This document shows positions 3,001 through 64,000 of a stretch of DNA of 64,000 bases, one piece after another; position 1 is the first letter of the stretch, and each line of letters starts with the position of its first letter. Under the pieces are notes generated by a model. It was given only the letters and a program-made list of their open reading frames with translations, did not search any database and was not told where the DNA came from. Origin of the DNA: Pegea sp. RAD2-039 (lineage: Eukaryota > Chordata > Thaliacea > Salpida > Salpidae). The stretch spans positions 3,224,001-3,288,000 of the forward strand of contig JAQGEQ010000380.1 of NCBI GenBank assembly GCA_034620365.1, read 5' to 3'. Both the position numbers and the translations under genes were made by a program.

Positions 3001-5693
3001 TACCAGCTGCAAATAACAAAGTTGGTCCTTTTAGTAGGTACAAGTTGGCTCGTTTGCAACAATCATATCCAAGTGATGTTGTAAACTGTAATAAATTTGC
3101 TGGAATCCCTGAATCTTCACTGACCCTAGCAGAGGATTTATATTCCTGTATATGATGGTGACAAATGAAGAACAAACAATTGACTGAAATAATAACTTAC
3201 TTCTGATTTATAAAAAAAGTCATTTGGAATTTTTTGTTCTTCCACACTCGCTAAAATTATAAAATTAAAAATTAAAAAGTTTTCAAAAAGTTTACTTCAA
3301 AAAGCTATAATTTGAATTCTAATAAAGAATATTTGAAGCTAGTATATCAAGTTGTATGAAGAAATTAGTCGAATAAGAATAATGATTTATGACGGTTAGA
3401 TGATTGAAAAAAGAATCTAAAAAATGCAAATTAGCTGCATGCGAATTAGTTGTATTCAAAATTCTTTATCAATTACTTGATACATGCATCTTATAATTAC
3501 TAACAAATGCTCCAACTGTTCATATTTCATGCTTCATGATTCGTTTTCACTAATGTGCAAATTTACCCGCCAAACTCGTACTTTTGTCATCAGGAGTTTC
3601 AACAGCTGATAAATTTGAAGTTGAACTTCTGTTTTTTTCATCTTTTGAAAAAGTTGTGACATCATCAGCTGTATCCTGAACATTATCAATATTTCTTGAT
3701 TTTACTTGTTCAACTTTATGTGACGTCATTTTTACGTCATCTACTTCTTGTGACGTCACTTTTACATCATCTTCTTCTTGTGACGTCATTTTTATGTCAT
3801 CTACTTCTTGTGACGTCACTTTTACATCATCTTCTTCTTGTGACGTCATTTTTACGTCATCAACTTCTTGTGACGTCATTTTTAAGTCATCTACTTCTTG
3901 TGACGTCACCTTTACGTCATCACTATCTTGTGACATCATTTGTACGTCATCACTATCTTGTGACATCATTTGTACGTCATCACTATCTTGTGACGTTATT
4001 TGTACGTCATCTACTTCCTGTGACGTCATTTGTACATCATCTACTTCCTGTGACGTCATTTGTACATCATCTACTTCTTGTGACGTCACTTTTACGTCAT
4101 CACTGTCTTGTGACATCACTTTTACGTCATCTACATCTTTAGAGGTCATTTTTACGTCAAAAAATTGAGTTTTGTTTGAAACATCAATTGCTCCTGAGAG
4201 TAACTTCATATCACTTATCGTTTCATCTTCTTCATTCTTTCCTTCTTTAACATTTTCAGTATCCGAACAAATCATCGTGACGTCATCACGACTCTCTGAC
4301 GTCATATCTTTACCATACAGAGACTCACTTTCTACATCTTGTTCAGCATCTACTGATTTTGTTTCAAAATCTTTTTCAGTTTTAGAAAAATCTTTAGCTC
4401 CTTGATCTTTTTCAGAAGTCTTGTTTTTGTCTTCAATATCTAAAGATGTTTTCATAGCAACTTCTATGACGTCATCACTCAAACTTATATTTGTCTCTGG
4501 AGTATTTTTAGTAATATTTTCCTCATTAGAAATCACGTGATCAGTTTTCAGGGAGTCTTTATCTGTTTCTTCTTCCACCATAGTCTCACCAGATTCAGAA
4601 TTATCTTTCAAATTTTCATCTTCATTCTCACCTTGTTTGTATCTAAATTTTGATTCCATCTCTCTTTCGCTATTTCCTTCTTCTTCAAGTTGTTGAAGCT
4701 CTGAAACTGAAGAAAAAGTTATTTTTCAAGTTAGAAATGATTTTCAATAGCTTCATGCAATTAAAAAGGGTTTTAACTTCACTTGACAACTATTGTAATT
4801 AAAGTGACTGATGAATGAAAAACTTATTAAAAATGATGAATGAAACATGCCTTTAAATTGACTTATTCATTATAAATTAAAAAAAGAATTATTGATGAAG
4901 AATAGATTTGAACTTCTGTTTCAATTTCTGTTTCTTAGCTTTTATATTATGGTACTTATTAAAATCAAAAATATGCTTAACTACTTGAAAATAGATGTTT
5001 ATTTACAAAAACTGACTCAATTGTTTAAATTAGTAAAAATATATATGAATAATAGAAAACAAAGTGGTCTACTATTTAATTAATTTATAAAGTATGAAAA
5101 TTGTAGATAATAGATTTAAATAATTAAAAAAGAAACATAGAAAGTAGTTTATAGCATGATTTAAAATTGCTTTTACATATCAAACTGTTTAAACTTCTGA
5201 AAATAAAATTCAGTTAATAATTAAAATATGAATAATTTATTAATAGAATATTTATTAATGTTTTTGAATGTGAAAAATTAAAGAAATTTGTGCAAATGAA
5301 ATTATATAAAGATTTATTAACTGTTAAAAACTTTAAATAAGACCCATACATTTAATCACTTGAAAACTTATCACATGCATTGATAATAAAATGAGTGAAT
5401 CCATCAGCTTGATTTTGTGCATATTACATGCTTTTATGATTAAAATGACACATGGGAGCATATATACCACGAGTACCTCCAACATCATCAAGAGATTCAT
5501 TAAAATCTACTTGATCATCATCTATTTCAACTGAAGATGAATTTAAAGTCTCATCATAACTTAATCTGAGTTTTCTTCTATATTTTTTTAAAGCATATGC
5601 TTTCAAACGATGAGTGGCAGCCTGTAAATTCTTTGGAGGTGGATGTGGGGGAGTTGGGGGGCTAGGGATTCTTTGCCATTCATCTTTGTCCAT
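1..5693 (-). CDS. CFAP44: CFAP44 (WDR52-like) axonemal WD-repeat protein, N-terminal part; C-terminus beyond left edge
   Basis: CFAP44 is part of the tether complex that anchors inner-arm dynein in motile cilia. Exons read leftward with closely spaced phase-consistent introns: 5468-5693 (start ATG 5693, proline-rich, basic), 3567-4706 (acidic, 10-residue repeats), 3201-3250, 2996-3145, 2870-2947, then many WD-repeat exons. Family landmarks seen: [14 protein letters not shown] (about 3060), [19 protein letters not shown] and [18 protein letters not shown] (2166-2369), [18 protein letters not shown] (1200-1255), a charged [20 protein letters not shown] helix (near 750) and [12 protein letters not shown] followed by [19 protein letters not shown] across a 49-nt intron at 194-242. 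Oddities: the repeat-rich acidic exon is not a family hallmark, and the join of the first exon to the second across a 760-nt AT-rich intron rests only on matching phase. The 5' exon could instead belong to a separate small gene. The identity of the WD part is secure; the N-terminal 450 residues are less so. Confidence 0.9.
3721..4163 (-). repeat. 30-bp coding minisatellite in the second CFAP44 exon
   Basis: Fourteen full 30-bp units lie end to end from 3721 to 4140, followed by a decayed part-unit. Read on the minus strand each unit encodes ten acidic residues, consensus [10 protein letters not shown], so the array forms a roughly 140-residue low-complexity tail at the CFAP44 N-terminus. On the plus strand each unit starts with TGACGTCA or a one-base variant; ten of fourteen keep the palindrome intact. 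Unit length is a multiple of three, so copy-number change would not break the frame, and opposite-strand frames are open as a by-product. Two sub-types alternate at 3721-3840, suggesting a 60-bp duplication, and two units at 3931-3990 are identical. Confidence 0.95.
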
Positions 5694-45352: not shown

Positions 45353-45972
45353 ATGAACTTTTGGTTGATTTTTGTTCTTGTGATTGTCAGTTTTATCTCG
45401 TCATCACTATCTTGTTGCCCTGCACACAAATGTCCAGACGAATATCTTGAAGTAGGTTTCAACACTTATAAAATCAATTAAAAATAATATTTCTTAAAAT
45501 AGTACAAATTTTTTCTTTTGATTATATTTTTTTCTGTATAAATACTTGAGAACTAGTTTTCAAACATCTAGACAAACTAATGATACTTATATATAAAATT
45601 TAAAGTCTCTAGTTTAAAAAAAAAAAGTATTTATTTTATTTTTCTAGAATACTCTAAGTTCGGATGCTCTCAACTACCTCCATCAACTTCAAAAGGTAGA
45701 AACTAATCCAATTTTGACTATGTTGGCTAGTTATTTATAATGAGAGATTATCTATATCATCTAGAATGATATGAGCCCAGCAAACACAGTTGAAGCAACT
45801 TATCAGCTCTTAGCTAACATCGCTGGAGATAAAAAAGCTCGAATATTCATCGCTGCTTTGGCTAAATCTTACCCTCTTACTAAAAAGTGAGTCATATATG
45901 ATTTAGATACGTGTTCCAGGATTAAAACTTTTTTAAATCGATGATTAATTAATTTACTTTAATTTCAGATAA
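45353..45972 (+). CDS. Secreted short peptide gene A, 90 aa, 4 exons
   Basis: Exons 45353-45451, 45648-45695, 45765-45886 and 45969-45972 join in phase; the stop TAA (45970-45972) is split from the last sense codon by an intron. The product has a strong signal peptide (MNFWLIFVLVIVSFISSSLS), a short cysteine motif CCPAHKCPDEYLE, the segment NTLSSDALNYLHQLQK, and a 41-residue C-terminal module starting NDMSPANTVEATYQLLANIA and ending ARIFIAALAKSYPLTKK. The module is helical and cationic at the end. I know no family with it. Likely secreted; whether it is a hormone, defence peptide or structural peptide cannot be read from sequence. An AATAAA lies at about 46131 downstream, and a TATATAA at 45277 upstream. 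The C-terminal exon is nearly identical to that of gene B. Confidence 0.7.
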
Positions 45973-46452
45973 TTCAAAATGAATGATTGACTCACATCAA
46001 GATTTCATGAACAATTTGATTGCAGTGATTTAACTTCTTATTAATCTACTTATATAACCAGTAATATAAATCTAAGAATATTATAACCAAACTTAACTTA
46101 TAACTTATTTTGTGTTGTTTAAACACAGAAATAAAATTGCTTGTCAAAAACACTTACGTCTCATTATTTTCTCAAGATCTACTTCTTCTCATTTAGTTTT
46201 TAACTTGACTATTTATCTTATTAAATTATTTTATGACTTTTATGACTGATGTTAGCTGCAAACAGTTTTTTAAAACGATGTCTCAAAATATATAATGAAA
46301 TAATAATTAGAAGTTTTTAAGAATGAAAGAAAATCATTAACTTGACTTTGAATAATAACAGTCTGATGAAAAATCTAAAATGTGTTTTAGCAGCTGAAAT
46401 AAGTAAAAGATAAAAGATTTTTTGGTTTGATTAGACTTGGCGCGACAAAAAG
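45721..46452 (+). repeat. Duplicated block, copy A (last coding exons plus 3' flank of gene A)
   Basis: About 732 bp nearly identical to 48566-49296. It starts within the intron before the shared exon and ends at CGCGACAAAAAG, well beyond the poly(A) signal. Differences are scattered single bases and one or two tiny indels; in the shared 122-bp coding exon I see a single change, silent (ATCGCT versus ATTGCT). Confidence 0.93.
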
Positions 46453-48343
46453 CTTGACCTTTGAAATACGAAAAATGATTTAAATATCACCTAAGCACAA
46501 AAACATCTTTTTGTTTAAAGATTAAAAAAGATTTGCTCAACAACACCAATTAATTGAAGATGTTTGATAGATCAAATTAGTTCTTAGTAATTGTGATTGG
46601 TTAAAACTTTTAACAACTAATTTGAAAGCATAACACTTTCAATACAAAGGTACAAGATATTTCAATCAAATAAATATAAAAACAAACAGCAAATATTTAG
46701 TAGAAAGAAGTTAGATACAACACCACAACTTAAATACTTTCAAATATTGAAACTTAAGACTGAGGCTGGTAGATGTTTTAGTTCACCAAGTTGTTTAAGG
46801 GTTGCTAGTAAGCTAGGCGCTTTTATAAACTTCCTTTACCACTAAATACAAGGTTTGTAGGTAGAATAATATTTTTGTGGCTTAGTATTTTTACTCTGTA
46901 ATTTTTACAATTAAAGCTAATTATTTTATCCAAATGAATTTTTATTTGATGAATTATTATAGTTACAATCAAACTAGAGCTGTTGGTTTTCAAATCAAAT
47001 TGCTTTCTAGCTGCCAAACAAGTAAACAAAATTGATTGAGACAGTCACTTAAAGTAGTATTTTTATTGTTTTAACTTAAAATAAAAACAATGAACGAAGA
47101 AAAGCTTGGCTTAAATTCAATTAAAACCTTTAAATCGTAAAAAAAGCTGTTAAGCTTGTAAAGGACCCATTGTGTTAATTGTTGTCATACATCAATGAGT
47201 AAGTTTTTTTTGTGAACAAAGTGGTCGGAGTAAAATCCAAGGTCAACTGAAGTAAAAACTAATCGAAAATACTTCGACCTTGAGTTTAGCTTTTATGAGA
47301 AAACAAGATAAAATGCAATAAAATTTGCTATTATTGATGTTTACTTGGATGTATGAAGCCCCATTTTGTTGTAGATTGGAGATGGCATGCGCCCTAAAGT
47401 AATTAACGTTTTTTATTACTCCAGTAAAAGAAATTTGATTAAAAAGACTAAAATTGACGACGTAGTTGCTTATAAGATAGATTTTATGTGCAATTCAAAG
47501 AGTTCTGAAAACAATTTAACATAACCTAAGTAGACTTTGAAGAACATACAAGTCACTAAAAGCAAGTGGATTTTTAGAGCCCTTAAGCACCTAACCGATT
47601 ATTCTTTTTTCGATAGTCAAACTGTTAATACACCAAACTATCATCTTTTTTATGTACCTCATACAGGATTCAACCCAATTTGCTGGTAAATATGTAAGAT
47701 TTAAACACATTACCACATGAACCATTGTTATCTTCATATAATGACACAAAATCTTAAAAATAATAAATAATAATTTAAGATAAAAAGAAAAACGAAATCA
47801 TCCAATTACACAGTATAAGCAAATTCTTTTTCTTTATTTAGATTTCTTAAGCATACATATTCATATTTGTTAAAAGATAATAAAAATCAGGTTGAAAGCT
47901 ATTGCACCTGATTTCAAAAAATGTGACAAATGATATATTTCAAGTAATATCTCAGATTTATTTTTGAAGCACAACAATGTCAATTGAATTCTAATGTTAT
48001 GTTGCGGTTTTTTTAAATCAAAAGGCAAACACAAACTAAATCATTTAAGCTTAAGATCAATTAATCTCAAAAGATCTGTACTTCCTCATGAAACAGAAGT
48101 TGAAATTAAACCTTTTAAATCTTGCAACAGCTCTAAATAAAACTATAAAGGAAGACACATTAAACCTACTTTACCATATATAAGGCCACAGTGCTTTTGT
48201 ATTTCAAAATCATCTTTCTAGCTACAGAAATTAGTTATCATTTTACTAAGTAAAGTTAATTAGGTTTCGATAATAGTTAAAACTCAATCTTAAAATCAAT
48301 ATTTTTTGTGATTTTTTAGTACCGTAAATCTTAAAAACTAAAA
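46453..48343. other. Spacer between secreted-peptide genes A and B
   Basis: AT-rich. The part from about 47200 to 48340 shows patches of weak similarity to the region upstream of gene A (for example GAACAAAGTGGTCGGAGTAAA near 47215 against GAACAAAGTAGTCAAAGGTAAA near 44935), consistent with an older tandem duplication of the whole gene with its promoter. No other gene was seen. Confidence 0.5.
48177..48185 (+). promoter_or_regulatory. Possible TATA box of peptide gene B
   Basis: TATATAAGG sits about 160 bp before the gene B start codon, in a short less AT-rich patch (CCATATATAAGGCCACAG). TATA-like words are common by chance in DNA of this composition, so support is weak. Confidence 0.3.
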
Positions 48344-48817
48344 ATGAATTTTAACTTGATGATTGTTTTGGTTGTGATCGGCTTAACCGCCTTTTCAACA
48401 TCAGATGCTTCAAGTCTCAACCACCGTCTTCAAGTTCAAAAAGTAAATATCTTATGGATTTTCAAAATCTTTCATTTTGAAGATTAGTTGTTTTAATTTT
48501 CTTTCAAAAACGTTGTTCAAATTTTCGTATTTTAAATGAATGATTCAATTTCGTGTCAGTACTAGTGTTGGCTAGTTATTTATAATGAGAGATTATTTAT
48601 ATCATCTAGAATGATATGAGCCCAGCAAACACAGTTGAAGCAACTTATCAGCTCTTAGCTAACATCGCTGGAGATAAAAAAGCTCGAATATTCATTGCTG
48701 CTTTGGCTAAATCTTACCCTCTTACTAAAAAGTGAGTCATATATGATTTAGATGCATGTTCCAGGATTAAAACTTTTTTAAATCGATGATTAATTAATTT
48801 ACTTTAATTTCAGATGA
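48344..48817 (+). CDS. Secreted short peptide gene B, 74 aa, 3 exons
   Basis: Exons 48344-48442, 48610-48731 and 48814-48817 join in phase, with the stop TGA (48815-48817) again separated by an intron. The first exon gives a signal peptide (MNFNLMIVLVVIGLTAFSTS) and SSLNHRLQVQK; the second encodes the same 41-residue module as gene A, with identical amino acids (NDMSPANTVEATYQLLANIA to SYPLTKK). Gene B lacks the CCPAHKC segment, and its first exon ends in a sequence resembling the second exon of gene A (LNYLHQLQK against LNHRLQVQK), so it is either a rearranged copy or the two were made alike by conversion. The leader has diverged strongly while the module has not. Confidence 0.7.
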
Positions 48818-49296
48818 TTCAAAATGAATGATTGACTCACATCAAGACTTCGTGAACACTTTGATTGCAGTGATTTAACTTCTTATTAATCTACTTATAT
48901 AACCAGTAATATAAATCTAAGAATATTATAACCAAACTTAACTTATAACTTATTTTGTGTTTTTAAACACAGAAATAAAATTGCTTGTCAAAAACACTTA
49001 CGTCTCATTTTTTTCTCAAGATCTACTTCTTCTCATTTAGTTTTTAACTTGACTATTTATCTTATTAAATTATTTTATGACTTTTATGACTGATGTTAGC
49101 TGCAAACAGTTTTTTAAAACGAGGTCTCAAAATATATAATGGAATAATAATTAGAAGTTTTTAAGAATGAAAGAAAATCATTAACTTGACTTTGAATAAT
49201 AACAGTCTGATGAAAAAACTAAAATGTGTTTTAGCAGCTGAAATAAGTAAAAGATGAAAGATGTTTTGGTTTGATTAGACTTAGCGCGACAAAAAG
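48566..49296 (+). repeat. Duplicated block, copy B (last coding exons plus 3' flank of gene B)
   Basis: About 731 bp, direct-orientation partner of 45721-46452, offset about 2.85 kb. Identity drops abruptly at both edges: upstream at the TGTTGGCTAG motif and downstream after CGCGACAAAAAG. Confidence 0.93.
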
Positions 49297-49931: not shown

Positions 49932-52514
49932 TTAGCAGGCAAGCCAATCTTTAGTAAAAGAGCTTGACCTAACTACTTTCTTCAAATCCATATCGTAAAC
50001 GTAATATTTTGTTTTTCTCAAAAAATAGATCATGTTTTTATCTGAAAACATCAAACAGTAAAAGTTAACTGAAATATTTTGTTTGAAATTTTAATAAAAA
50101 CTATTGAATAGGGTTTTACTTGGTACAATTATTTTGAGCATATCGATTAATTTATAACTTGTTAAGATAAAAAAACTTATTATAGATTTTTTGTGATAGT
50201 AAACAAACTAATACTTTACCTTTAGAAGTGGTAAAAGCAGCTTGGAACTTCTTGGGCGACTTAGGAAACGCATCTAGCCGCTTTTCAGGACCACTTTCAA
50301 CGTTGATGGTTTTTTTATCACCTAACTTCCAATATATGTTACCTTTAAAGATTTCAATTAAGACACAATGAGTTAGAGTCATAGAACAAAATAGATAGCT
50401 CAATTTAAGTAAGGAAACTTTTCAATATGAATTTTTTAAAGAAATTAAATGACTGCAAAATAAAAAAGATATTATAAAAAATTAAAGTAAATAAACCAAT
50501 TTTAGATAATTTTTAAACAATCTAGTAATAGAAAGTTTGATTAAAATTTTTCTGTATAAGCCAAATAAAAGCCTTCTACCTTTTTTGATAAAATTATAAA
50601 AGAAAACCGAAAGAATATTTTTTTTTAATTTTGTAAATACTATTATACAAAATATGTTTTTCAAATAAAATTAGACAAAAGCTAAAAGATTATAACCTAC
50701 CATTAAACAGAAATGTTTTTTTTGACTGCGCCAACCAAACAGCTGCCTTGATGGGCTTTTTAACACCTTTTCTTTTTAAGCTGTAAGGTCCTCTTAGAAA
50801 CCTATTTCCTCCTGAATAATCCCAACAATTTTTCCCTGAAGCAACGTTTTAAAAGTTTTAATAAATTTATTTAATAAATTTGATTTACTTCAATAATCTA
50901 AATATAGATTTTATAATACCCAAATAAGATGTTAAAAAATGTGACTTGACGCTTAAATATATCATTCAATATTAATAAAAAATTCTTGAGTTTGTATAAG
51001 ATAAAATATTTAATAGAAAATTTTAGTATAAAAGTTAAATAAATGAAATAAAAACTTTTAAAAAATTTCATATTTCTAATGACATTTCAAATAAAAATGA
51101 AGTTTGTATATAAAAAACTAAACCTTTGAAAAAACGAACGATATCTTGCTCCACATTTTCATATACTGCTGTAAAATCTCCTGAAAGTTGTTTCCAGAAA
51201 GTATCTACTCTGCGAGGTTCATTAAAACTAGTTTGTCCTTTTAATCTTCTCCAATACCACAAACCGCTGATAAAAACACATAGATAAATGTTCTTAATTG
51301 AAACTGAAATTATCATAAATAAATATTTCTTTATTTACCTAAAGACAAACAAATCTTCTCTAATAAAAGTGACAGCATCATAAGATTTTAAATCACAAAG
51401 ATTTGGAGGAACTGGTTCGGTTGGTATCTCAGTAGGAGGTGGTACTGTAGTTTTCCAAGCTCCTTTAGTAGTCATTGGCAAGCTTCTTTTTCCTGAAATT
51501 AAAGTTACAAATGAAGTTAACTTGTTTCGTTAATTAAGATGCTTAGTCGACCTCATTTAGCCTGTTTCAAAATTACAAACTCACCATATAAGCTTTGAAT
51601 GTCTTCAATATCTCGTTTAAAAAGCTTAAAGTTTTTTGAATCGTGGTATTGATAAGAGCTATACATGATAGACTGCTTAGTGCCTATATGACCTAAGCCT
51701 AGAGCATGACCAATTTCATGAACAGCCACCAAAAACAAGTCACAGCACGCTATAAAACAACAATTTCAGTAAGATGATATACTGTTAAGTTAAAATACTT
51801 ACGAGTGCTGACATTAGAGTTGAAATGCCAATTTTCTTCGTCATCAATATGGATTGAAATAAATGGAAACTCCCCATATGGTATGACATGTGCAAGGTAC
51901 CCACCATTTCCTTCAAATGGCTGTCTGTCCCTATGGCGACGCTTCACGAAACTTATCACATAGTTTTCATTTCCAGTATAAGATTTTTCATAAAAGTCAA
52001 TGTTTGTATATCTACTCCATGTATCAAACGCTCGTTTGATAATTTGTTGAATCTTGACATGCGGAATTTGTGGCGAAGTGTTTGCAAAGCTGAAAGTAAA
52101 ATTTAATGACAAATTATAAAAATAAATTAGATAACAAACCTATAAGAGCGTAAATCCACATTAGAACTTCTATAGACAAAGTTGGAAGGTTTGTTGACCT
52201 GAAAAAGATTAAGTTTAAAACATAATTTTAAAGAGCAACTGAAAAGGCTTTTTGATATCTTTAAAAAGCTGACAAAACTTCACTATTAAAAGAAGAAAAA
52301 AAGTAATAATAAAAATACAATTTCGACAATTTAAAAAAGGTAGTTAAAAACAACATTTTTAATAAAAAGTTAAACGTTCACTTACTATATCTAACTTTGA
52401 TGTCAAAGAATTAGTATTGTTAAGATCAGTAAGATCTTTGTTAATGACAGGAGATGATAAAGCAAAGCTTAGGATAGTAACGCCCACAAATAAACCTATC
52501 AATTTCATTTTCAT
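49932..52514 (-). CDS. Matrix metalloproteinase with hemopexin domain, no visible prodomain, 434 aa
   Basis: MMPs are secreted zinc endopeptidases that cut extracellular matrix. Nine exons read leftward and join in phase: 52386-52514, 52140-52198, 52089 down to 51803, 51585-51749, 51339-51492, 51124-51266, 50701-50835, 50220-50342, 49932-50041. Order: signal peptide (about 1-20, MKMKLIGLFVGVTILSFALS), about 35 residues, catalytic domain (about 50-220) with FDTWSRYTNIDF, PFEGNGGYLAHV, HEIGHALGLGH (three zinc histidines and catalytic Glu) and Met-turn SIMY; Pro/Thr hinge; hemopexin domain from NLCDLKSYDAVTFI to the closing DWLAC, with the expected pair of end cysteines. The usual 80-residue propeptide with its PRCGxPD cysteine switch is absent: only VINKDLTDLN-type sequence and VNKPSNFVYR lie between signal and catalytic domain, and the 187-nt intron there holds no such motif. 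No furin site or membrane anchor was seen. Confidence 0.9.
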
Positions 52515-61800: not shown

Positions 61801-64000
61801 TCAATCTCCAAAGATCACTTATCACTTGTGACGGTACAGATGCAAGTAAAGAAGAGTGGATGCAGGAAAAGATGAAGATGCAAGAAGAGATTGAAGAGAT
61901 GCAGAAGCAGATGTCTCAACAGCAAAAGGATCAGGATCTTCTACAGCAACGTTACGACAACTTGAAAGATGAACTGGAAATCGCGCGTCGTGACGTCATT
62001 CAGCGATCGTCTTTTGATGTTTGTTCCATTTTACTTATCGGTATCCAAGTGATTCATCTTGATTTTTCAGGATCAGGAGCTTCAGATGCAAGTAAACAAA
62101 CTGGAAGAAGAGAAGAAGAATATGGAGTCAAAGATGCCTTCTAAAGAAGAGCAAATTACTTCTCAGGTATTTTCTTCCCGATCTGCCGTTCCTAATGATC
62201 TCTGATCTTCATCTTACTCTGAAGATGCTACTTGAATCTCAAAATGAATGCCAAGATCTCAAAGAAGAAATGAGTAAATTAAGACAAAGTCTGACACTAG
62301 ATGGAGGTAAAGAGCTGAGCAAAGACAGCGCAGTATTCAAAGTAAGTGATGACGTCATCATCTGCGCTCGAATGTGACGTCATTATTGACGCAGGAGCTT
62401 TGTGAGAAAGTGGAATTGATGCAGAAGGAACTAGATGTTTATAAAGAGAAAGAAATTCATCGAAAGCTCAAGCAATCTTCAAATGACGTAAGTTTAGCAA
62501 TCACGCGACTAGATGACGTCATCTCATGTCTTGTGACGTTATCAGACTCGCTCAACGATGACGGATGCTGAGTTGTTGGGAAGTAGAAATCGAATGGAAG
62601 ACATCAATGTAGAAAAGTTAGAAAAAAGCGATTTGAAAACTGTTCTGGCCAAAGTTTATGATCACAACAGGTAAGAGGTTGTTAGTTCGAAATACCAGCT
62701 GGTTCGAAACATCAGCTGGTTCAAAACATCAGCTGGTTTGAAACATCAGCTGGTTCGAAACATCAGCTGGTTCGAAACACCAGCTGGTTTGAAACATCAG
62801 CTGGTTTGAAACATCAGCTGGTTCGAAACACCAGCTGGTTTGAAACATCAGCTGGTTTGAAACATCAGCTGGTTCGAAACATCAGCTGGTTCAAAACACC
62901 AGCTGGTTCGAAACATCAGCTGGTTTGAAACATCAGCTGGTTCAAAACACCAGCTGGTTCGAAACATCAGCTGGTTCGAAACATCAGCTGGTTTGAATCA
63001 TCAGCTGGTTCGAAATATCAGCTGGTTTGAAACATCAACTGGTTCGAAACTGATTAAAATATCTTTTTAGAATTTTGGAAGTTGAACTGGAAGCGCAGAG
63101 AAGAGATCATGAAACGGAAGTTGAAGATTTACGGAAGAAGTCAAACTTGAAGATTTCAACCATCAAAAAAGTTGTGTTGATGTTTATTAAATCAACTATT
63201 TAATAACCAACTGGTTACCAACAGAACAGTAACTTTGATGTGGCTGGTGATTTAGATTTCCACCAGGTAGAAATGACACGATTGAACCATGAAAACAACC
63301 AACTACAACAACAAGTAGAAGCTTGTGAAAGTACCATCAAGAAACTTCGGCGCCAACTGAAATTGTATAGCAAGAAATTAAATGAAGGTCTTTACCTCCT
63401 TATCACGTCTCGATGTCATCTACAACTCATCTATATTGTTTCAGGAGCCAATCAAGAAGGTTTATTGGGAGCTGATGAGGATCTGGTGCCAGTGGCAGTT
63501 ACTAACCATCCAGTTCTACGTCATAAAGATTCGGTGACGTCATTAGGAATGCTGCAGTATAAGTTTGGGGATGAATTCCACATCGTAAAACAGATCATCC
63601 ACGGTAAGAAGATCAAGTGATCCAAGTAGATGATGGATGTTGTGTCTTGCAGAGTATCCACCACCCGAAGGCACAGAACTTCCTGGCCTACAAGCTTATC
63701 TGCTTTTTAAATTACTTCGATTTGCTGATTACAATAATGATGAAAGGATGATCAAATCTCTTCTTCAACAGATCATCAGTGGAATCAAGACTGTTGAGAA
63801 GGTCTTAGAAACCTGCATCCAAATAGAATCTCATTTCTACTCTTTTCACAGAAACATGAAAACGACTTTGAATATATGTCCTTCTGGTTCTCAAATACCA
63901 ATATTTTTCTTCATAGTATGAAACAATACAGCGGTGATGACGTAAGTCCCAACCTCCAAGGACCCCAGATCCCAACTTGATTATTGTATTTAGGAATATG
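55875..64000 (+). CDS. MYO5: Class V myosin heavy chain, C-terminal dilute domain cut by right edge
   Basis: Class V myosins carry vesicles and organelles along actin. Thirty-four exons join in phase for about 1481 codons, from ATG 55875 to 63941, and a further exon opens at 63994. Motor: SELYT-like start (MSNIELYTE), P-loop GESGAGKT (56820), switch [16 protein letters not shown] (57007), switch II LDIYGFETF split by an intron at 58407, actin-binding [10 protein letters not shown] (60030), converter near IFFRAGQ (60400). Neck: six IQ motifs over 60471-61040, ending KKELKKLK as in vertebrate MYO5A. Tail: coiled coil from 61092 to about 63387 in several segments, then the dilute/globular cargo-binding domain beginning [13 protein letters not shown] and [18 protein letters not shown]. 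Loop 2 (59740-59913) is Lys/Ser/Thr-rich. Introns are mostly 47-61 nt, with AT-rich outliers at 57779-58272 and 59052-59739. The first half of the gene is AT-rich, the second clearly less so. Confidence 0.97.
61321..61445 (+). repeat. 24-bp intronic minisatellite in myosin V
   Basis: About five units of GATCCTCATCTTCCTGATCT plus TTTT, within the intron 61182-61461 just before its acceptor. The upstream part of the intron (61190-61320) is a looser version of the same CTGATCTTCATC-rich sequence. The array makes the intron about 280 nt instead of 50. Both strands are open because the period is a multiple of three; the antisense reading (KDQEDEDQ repeats) is not a gene. Confidence 0.9.
62683..63050 (+). 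repeat. 17-bp intronic minisatellite in myosin V (CAGCTGGTTCGAAACAT)
   Basis: Within the intron 62671-63070, the 17-bp unit CAGCTGGTTCGAAACAT repeats about 21 times in perfect register: CAGCTGG recurs every 17 bp from 62696 to 63019, then once as CAACTGG at 63036. The variable positions are C/T in TTCGAA/TTTGAA, C/A in TTCAAA and T/C in CAT/CAC. Each unit therefore holds two palindromes, CAGCTG (an E-box) and often TTCGAA. The array fills nearly the whole intron, which is 400 nt against the usual 50. Confidence 0.97.

What the first reader, a model, noticed from the sequence alone, without database searches (positions are those of the whole stretch)
45353..48817. Undescribed tandem pair of secreted peptides sharing an invariant 41-residue module
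Two adjacent genes have different signal-peptide exons but encode an identical C-terminal module (NDMSPANTVEATYQLLANIA to SYPLTKK). Gene A adds a CCPAHKC segment that gene B lacks. In both genes the stop codon is split off by a final intron. I know of no family with this module. Different leaders on one conserved module suggest a secreted effector or signalling peptide expressed in different settings.
Basis: partly seen in the sequence, partly recalled or inferred. Interest (0 to 1): 0.75.

Follow-up and report, generated by a model that had tools for sequence, protein, structure and literature searches.

The report
Sea-squirt-type secreted defence-like peptide family
Two neighbouring small genes for secreted-looking peptides belong to a large peptide family in what is probably a sea squirt (tunicate) genome, some of whose members are built like natural antibiotics; the "invariant" piece that the two genes share is identical mainly because it was copied recently.

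Summary
In detail: genes A and B lie at the stated positions, with different signal-like exons, the same 41-residue module exon and a final intron that splits the stop codon. "Invariant" misleads: the module lies in one 737-column, 97.7% identical copied block that also covers introns and 3' flank.

The module is not confined to this pair. Single-protein searches of the window's own genome gave 48 module places of 8 types (1 partial; 37 read as DNA), 27 on this contig. The genes read encode small secreted-looking proteins: signal exon, variable middle, module exon. Type-3 modules show purifying selection (pN/pS 0.17). Types 6-8 are built like ascidian antimicrobial-peptide precursors: signal, cationic stretch, acidic module. 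A and B lack the cationic stretch; their module is net +3. A GH6 gene points to a tunicate host.

Best reading: A and B are diverged members of a tunicate secreted peptide family, probably of innate defence. Membership is well supported; the link to the AMP-like types runs through types 2 and 3, and a defence role for A and B is inference by association. No transcript or activity data exist here.

The parts
45353..45451 (+). Gene A exon 1: signal-like peptide plus CCPAHKCPDEYLE
   Evidence: Open frame from ATG to a GTAGGT donor, phase 0; exon end resembles that of type 2
45648..45695 (+). Gene A exon 2: NTLSSDALNYLHQLQK
   Evidence: CTAG acceptor and GTAG donor, phase 0 on both sides
45765..45886 (+). 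Gene A module exon (41 residues)
   Evidence: CTAG acceptor, GTGAGT donor; recognised by a profile built without A/B, E 2.3e-7
45969..45972 (+). Gene A start of terminal exon: last base of Lys codon plus stop TAA
   Evidence: TTTCAG acceptor; split stop as in gene B and type 2
48344..48442 (+). Gene B exon 1: signal-like peptide plus SSLNHRLQVQK
   Evidence: Open frame from ATG to a GTAAAT donor, phase 0
48610..48731 (+). Gene B module exon (same 41 residues)
   Evidence: CTAG acceptor, GTGAGT donor; profile hit E 2.3e-7
48814..48817 (+). Gene B start of terminal exon: last base of Lys codon plus stop TGA
   Evidence: TTTCAG acceptor
45717..46452 (+). Copied block, copy at gene A (end of intron, module exon, last intron, 3' UTR, flank)
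   Evidence: 97.7% identical to 48561-49296 over 737 columns
48561..49296 (+). Copied block, copy at gene B
   Evidence: 97.7% identical to 45717-46452; no third place in the genome

Best explanation
Genes A and B are two diverged members of a large, clustered, duplicating family of small secreted peptides in a tunicate. Each gene has a signal-like exon, a short variable middle, and a main last exon for a conserved module of about 37-51 residues, probably two short helices joined at an invariant glycine. In types 6-8 the middle is a cationic stretch that ends before an acidic residue and the module is acidic, as in ascidian linear cationic antimicrobial peptide (LCAMP) precursors; there the module would be a neutralising proregion that is cut off. 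In A, B and types 2, 3 and 5 the modelled members lack that arrangement and the module is net positive, so it is probably part of the released product. The likeliest role is innate defence, for example in blood cells or on epithelia. SHOWN by sequence: gene layout, family, recent copying, constraint on the module in type 3. INFERRED: secretion, helical fold, tunicate host (strong). INFERRED BY ASSOCIATION ONLY: a defence role for A and B.
For: Seven own-genome searches at E <= 10 listed only places I group in this family, though the tool's first look filters hard; 48 places in all, 27 on contig C6, which holds 4% of the genome (binomial 2e-25, not corrected for tandem copying); types 1, 2, 3, 4, 5 and 7 all have members there. 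A profile of 13 modules without A/B ranks A/B first in the window, E 2.3e-7, next 0.77. The 13 modules each lie straight behind an AG (I had chosen their starts at acceptors). Gene A and type 2 align over their full length, E 1e-9, and share the split stop. Type-3 module pN/pS 0.17 at pS 0.395, 9 sequences, 8 distinct. Type 6, 6 of 12 places: middle pN/pS 2.47, module 0.59. Middles of types 6-8: net +4 to +7 before the acidic site and mu 0.37-0.58 in 5 of 5 examined, against 12% of 495 unrelated pieces and 5% of 63 coding pieces reaching mu 0.35 with the same charge rule. Module net charge -2 to -7 in three members of types 6-8, +1 to +4 in six of types 1, 2, 3, 5. Most Ciona LCAMP candidates run signal, cationic region, anionic helix; styelins and clavanins are cut before D or DD (PMC7387483, passages). 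GH6 exon E 1.8e-8 (place).
Against: A and B have no cationic helix: middle net -2 (A) and +2 in 11 residues (B); the module's best cationic window has mu 0.26, and 27-36% of unrelated pieces pass that loose test. A profile without type 2 and L017 gives A/B only 0.0092, and without types 2 and 3 only 0.67, below an unrelated piece at 0.35; so the link to types 5-8 rests on types 2 and 3. Amphipathicity beats shuffling in 2 of 5 middles (p 0.018, 0.028; the others 0.137, 0.24, 0.38). The module profile does not recognise 14 published Ciona anionic helices: best 0.4 bits, shuffles up to 5.2. Type-5 module pN/pS is 2.27, on few differences. In type 3 one member (L017) has a long middle of net +7 with a positive module, which does not fit a neat charge switch. 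No expression or activity data; the structure job never finished.
Confidence: 0.58

Rival explanations
1. A and B make signalling peptides (hormone-, pheromone- or cytokine-like) with the module as the receptor ligand; the family is shared but the role of this branch is communication.
For: Small size, signal-like exon, conserved module and no cationic helix in A, B, types 2 and 5; type-3 modules under purifying selection.
Against: No dibasic cleavage sites flank the module in A or B as read; many recent tandem copies and a fast-changing middle in type 6 are more usual for defence.
Confidence: 0.17
2. The peptides are structural or reproductive secretions, for example tunic, mucus or seminal components.
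For: Large families of small secreted proteins in clusters occur there too (established knowledge, not tested); nothing here excludes it.
Against: The AMP-precursor layout of types 6-8 has no evident use in that setting.
Confidence: 0.12
3. A and B, or one of them, are dead or unexpressed duplicates, and only other family members work.
For: Recent copying of only the 3' part; no RNA evidence; the 3' copy alone could have been pasted behind an unrelated signal-like frame.
Against: Both frames are intact, with standard splice sites, and the only coding change in the copied module is synonymous; full-length kinship of A with type 2.
Confidence: 0.1
4. One reading: an isolated pair with a module kept invariant by selection on a secreted effector.
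For: The module is identical in both genes.
Against: Introns and 3' flank are nearly identical too, and 46 further module places exist in the genome.
Confidence: 0.03

Closest known systems
Ascidian linear cationic alpha-helical AMP precursors of Ciona (Ci-MAM, Ci-PAP, Ci-META; PMC7387483, passages seen)
   Same: Small secreted precursors with conserved signal peptides; types 6-8 here have the same order: signal, cationic stretch, anionic C-terminal region, with acidic residues at the boundary.
   Different: A and B lack the cationic helix and have a net positive module; the module profile does not recognise 14 published Ciona anionic helices, so common descent is not shown.
Styelins and botryllin of Styela and Botryllus (PMC9966394, passages seen; cleavage before D from PMC7387483, passages seen)
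   Same: Order signal, mature peptide, proregion; type-6 middles begin (G/D)W and end LG before D. That styelins begin with GW is recalled and comes from no call.
   Different: No sequence comparison with styelin or botryllin precursors was made. The botryllin precursor has 158 residues and a 37-residue mature peptide.
Pfam PF10917 Fungus-induced protein
   Same: Residues 1-27 of gene A, mostly the signal-like part, match weakly.
   Different: E 0.19, 12.5 bits against a cut-off of 24: no membership.

Membership tests
Ascidian LCAMP precursor (criteria as in PMC7387483) | Signal peptide | tested here: inconclusive
   Hydrophobic N-termini in A, B and the members modelled; no signal-peptide predictor was on hand.
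Ascidian LCAMP precursor (criteria as in PMC7387483) | 50-100 residues | tested here: met
   A 90, B 74.
Ascidian LCAMP precursor (criteria as in PMC7387483) | No cysteine after the signal | tested here: not met
   Gene A has 3 Cys; gene B has none.
Ascidian LCAMP precursor (criteria as in PMC7387483) | Cationic amphipathic helix between signal and proregion, in A and B | tested here: not met
   Middle net -2 in A, no qualifying window; +2 in 11 residues in B, too short.
Ascidian LCAMP precursor (criteria as in PMC7387483) | Anionic helical C-terminal region, in A and B | tested here: not met
   Module net +3.
Ascidian LCAMP precursor (criteria as in PMC7387483) | Cationic stretch plus anionic C-terminus, in types 6, 7 and 8 | tested here: met
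   5 of 5 middles examined, net +4 to +7 before the acidic site; modules -2 to -7. The rule is loose: 27-36% of unrelated pieces pass it at mu 0.1, 5-12% at mu 0.35.
Ascidian LCAMP precursor (criteria as in PMC7387483) | Sequence relation of the module to Ciona anionic helices | tested here: not met
   Best of 14 published helices 0.4 bits; shuffles reach 5.2 bits.
Ascidian LCAMP precursor (criteria as in PMC7387483) | Antimicrobial activity | not testable with these tools
   Needs peptide and assay.
The family described here (common module exon) | Module recognised by a profile built without A/B | tested here: met
   E 2.3e-7; 0.0092 without type 2 and L017; 0.67 without types 2 and 3.
The family described here (common module exon) | Module exon directly behind an AG acceptor | tested here: met
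   A, B and 13 of 13 other modules examined; the starts had been chosen at acceptors.
Host is a tunicate | GH6-domain gene in an animal genome | tested here: met
   C14:74494, over the Pfam cut-off, E 1.8e-8 on the exon. [quoted passage not shown]
Host is a tunicate | Cellulose synthase (CesA) gene | not tested
Pfam PF10917 Fungus-induced protein | Score over the curated cut-off | tested here: not met
   12.5 bits against 24.

The most novel reading that the evidence does not exclude
One conserved C-terminal exon serves as a common frame for a tunicate peptide arsenal: different middle exons stand between a signal exon and this module, and the module's charge goes with the payload, from an acidic mask behind cationic peptides (types 6-8) to a positively charged, possibly active module where there is no such peptide (A, B, types 2 and 5, most of type 3). 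The split stop of A and B would be the shrunken remnant of an acidic tail exon that still codes in type 7.
Probability: 0.25. Interest if true: 0.7.

Novelty: new variant of a known kind. Interest (0 to 1): 0.5.

Why it matters
Short, fast-evolving defence peptides are hard to find by homology. A constrained module exon that can be followed through 48 places and 8 subfamilies gives a handle for collecting such peptides in a relative of vertebrates, including AMP-like members (types 6-8) that could be synthesised and tested. It also makes testable how a precursor's proregion and payload change against each other in charge. For the pair in the window it replaces an orphan pair by a place in a family, and shows that the identical module reflects recent copying.

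Tried and rejected
Considered and dropped: (1) module invariant through selection: contradicted, it lies in a 97.7% identical block with intron and flank. (2) A dispersed repeat: the 1,100-bp query matches two places only (the tool skips very common words). (3) Arthropod host: PF00379 gave nothing, but nothing rang in the control genomes either, so inconclusive. (4) COX1 for naming the host: none found. (5) Paper searches for the assembly and for a matching tunicate genome: no identification. (8) A first upstream A/B alignment with weak gap costs scored below the shuffle mean (2147 against 2207); redone with stricter costs. (9) Automatic modelling of the type-5 middle worked for 3 of 14 loci. 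(10) Weak Pfam hits below the cut-offs, taken as chance: SurA_N_3 (E 0.00088, 19.6 of 27.2 bits) and DUF659 (E 0.002, 18.2 of 34.7 bits) for type 5, Imm17 and Neprosin for gene B, others. (11) Not found in print: three searches, of which I saw listings with starts of abstracts; none of the listed titles names such a family, but only the top rows were shown and subscription papers are mostly not held. (12) Rfam: no match at the gathering score; the two tRNA-Phe calls lie in a 17-bp satellite and are probably false.
Full report
WHAT IS THERE. Gene A has three coding exons before the terminal exon, gene B two; the coding joints before the last intron are phase 0. The last intron splits the stop codon (AA|A TAA in A, AA|A TGA in B). 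Because a GTRAGT donor in that phase reads as a stop, unspliced RNA would end at the same residue. A is 90 and B 74 residues long.

WHY THE MODULE IS IDENTICAL. The module exon lies in one block, 45717-46452 against 48561-49296, 97.7% identical over 737 columns. It begins in the intron before the module and runs through the last intron and the 3' region. One of the 15 mismatches falls in the 126 coding positions and is synonymous; coding and non-coding parts do not differ significantly (Fisher p 0.33-0.49). So the identity is what recent copying (duplication or gene conversion) gives. The 5' parts show only weak similarity: an upstream stretch whose score 3 of 200 shuffles reach, and signal exons whose score 1 of 500 shuffles reaches. 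An older tandem pair with a converted 3' end is plausible, not proven.

THE FAMILY. The window is part of a 105.7-Mb assembly of 387 contigs. Gene B at E <= 10 found, besides A and B, one place on C78 (E 0.18) and two on C6 (E 0.27). Reading these gave small genes with a signal-like first exon and the module as last main exon. Searching on with their modules brought the total to 48 places of 8 types: type 1 (A, B) 2, type 2 2, type 3 9, type 4 1, type 5 14 plus 1 partial, type 6 12, type 7 6, type 8 1. I read the DNA of 37 of the 48; the other 11 are known from search rows only. Of the 48, 27 lie on C6 between 2.08 and 4.27 Mb, and types 1, 2, 3, 4, 5 and 7 all have members there. The type-2 genes lie 3.5 and 9.3 kb from the nearest type-5 gene (places). 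Some copies on short contigs may be unmerged haplotypes; on the other hand the tool calls its counts lower bounds.

HOW FIRM THE LINK TO A AND B IS. A profile from 13 other modules puts A and B first in the window with E 2.3e-7; the next piece has 0.77 and the best in the reversed window 0.16. Type 2 and L017 were found with gene B and so favour it: without them E is 0.0092, still first. Without all of types 2 and 3 it is 0.67 and an unrelated piece ranks higher at 0.35. Gene A and type 2 align over their whole length (E 1e-9 for that single comparison) and share the split stop. Between the other types the genome searches give: 3 with 5 at 0.007-0.27, 3 with 6 at 0.01-0.24, 6 with 7 at 2.3e-5 to 2.6e-4, 8 with 6 and 7 at 0.14-0.81. 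The 13 modules lie straight behind an AG, though I had chosen their starts at acceptors. I hold membership of A and B to be well supported through types 2 and 3, and the tie to types 5-8 to be probable.

CONSTRAINT. In type 3, 9 modules (8 distinct) give pN/pS 0.17 with pS 0.395: purifying selection on the module as protein. In type 5, 14 modules (8 distinct) give 2.27 on very few differences, which I do not interpret. In type 6, from 6 of 12 places, the middle has pN/pS 2.47 with an indel, the signal 1.28, the module 0.59; these are few and related sequences.

AMP-LIKE MEMBERS. Type 6 reads signal, then for example GWVRHFVHHAWKGVKHAALKTAVHYLG before DEQ, then an acidic module. Type 7 has DWSSAFIRRLFKGRRRTKPSIHHFMRVVLG before DKN, an acidic module and, behind the last intron, an acidic tail ANHMSDGFEDEEAVDELDSEIDN. 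Type 8 is similar. Five middles examined (three of type 6, one each of types 7 and 8) have net +4 to +7 before the acidic site and windows with mu 0.37-0.58; 12% of 495 unrelated pieces and 5% of 63 coding pieces reach mu 0.35 with the same charge rule. Against their own shuffles 2 of 5 are significant. In Ciona most LCAMP candidates are signal, cationic amphipathic region, anionic helical region, with acidic residues at the boundary, and styelins and clavanins are cut before D or DD (PMC7387483, passages). Botryllin is a styelin-like pre-propeptide of 158 residues made by morula cells (PMC9966394, passages); tunicate AMPs are mostly made by hemocytes (PMC5465252, passages). The module profile does not recognise 14 published Ciona anionic helices, so this is likeness of layout; common descent is not shown.

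GENES A AND B THEMSELVES. They lack the cationic middle (net -2 in A, +2 in 11 residues of B). Their module is net +3 with at best a weak cationic window, mu 0.26; 27-36% of unrelated pieces pass that loose test. Gene A adds three cysteines. They therefore fail the definition of an LCAMP precursor, and a defence role for them rests on association with the family.

THE SPLIT STOP. In type 7 the last intron leads to a coding exon for an acidic tail; in A, B and type 2 the intron behind the module leads to an exon that supplies only the last base of a lysine codon and the stop. In most of the type-3 copies and in the C6 type-5 copies a donor-like GT lies a few bases behind the stop. The split stop thus looks like a family trait, perhaps a shrunken tail exon (inference).

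HOST. A GH6 exon at C14:74494 passes the Pfam cut-off. [quoted passage not shown] With matrixin, FH2 and IQ domains in the window the host is an animal, very likely a tunicate. COX1 was not found, the arthropod cuticle search had no working control, and CesA was not tested.

VERDICT. The invariance is explained by recent copying. No family over a cut-off turned up in Pfam for A, B or the six other members scanned, none in the PDB for gene B or a type-6 middle, and none in the listings of three paper searches. The function of A and B is untested.

Noticed in passing
G000:C6:3034108 and 3039926 (L007, L008): A second recent tandem pair of the family (type 2), 98.0% identical over 1,351 columns including introns and flank: the same copying pattern as A and B.
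   Followed up: partly
L057 1276-1407 and the exon behind it: In type 7 the last intron leads to a coding exon for a strongly acidic tail; in A, B and type 2 the exon behind the module supplies only the end of a lysine codon and the stop.
   Followed up: partly
window 51750-52139 (-): Matrixin (peptidase M10) exon, E 5.1e-20, about 2.5 kb downstream of the copied block.
   Followed up: no
window 3719-4159: 30-bp tandem repeat, 14.7 copies, inside a 391-codon open frame on the minus strand: a protein with a ten-residue repeat.
   Followed up: no
window 62685-63050: 17-bp satellite of 21.5 copies; both tRNA-Phe calls of ARAGORN lie in it and are probably false.
   Followed up: partly
G000:C14:74494-74718 (L059): GH6 glycosyl hydrolase exon in a stretch with several further long open frames, the basis for calling the host a tunicate.
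   Followed up: partly
G000:C6:4263856 and 4266087: A partial type-5 module with an internal stop and a type-7 module lie within the last 4 kb of contig C6, so family copies reach the contig end.
   Followed up: no
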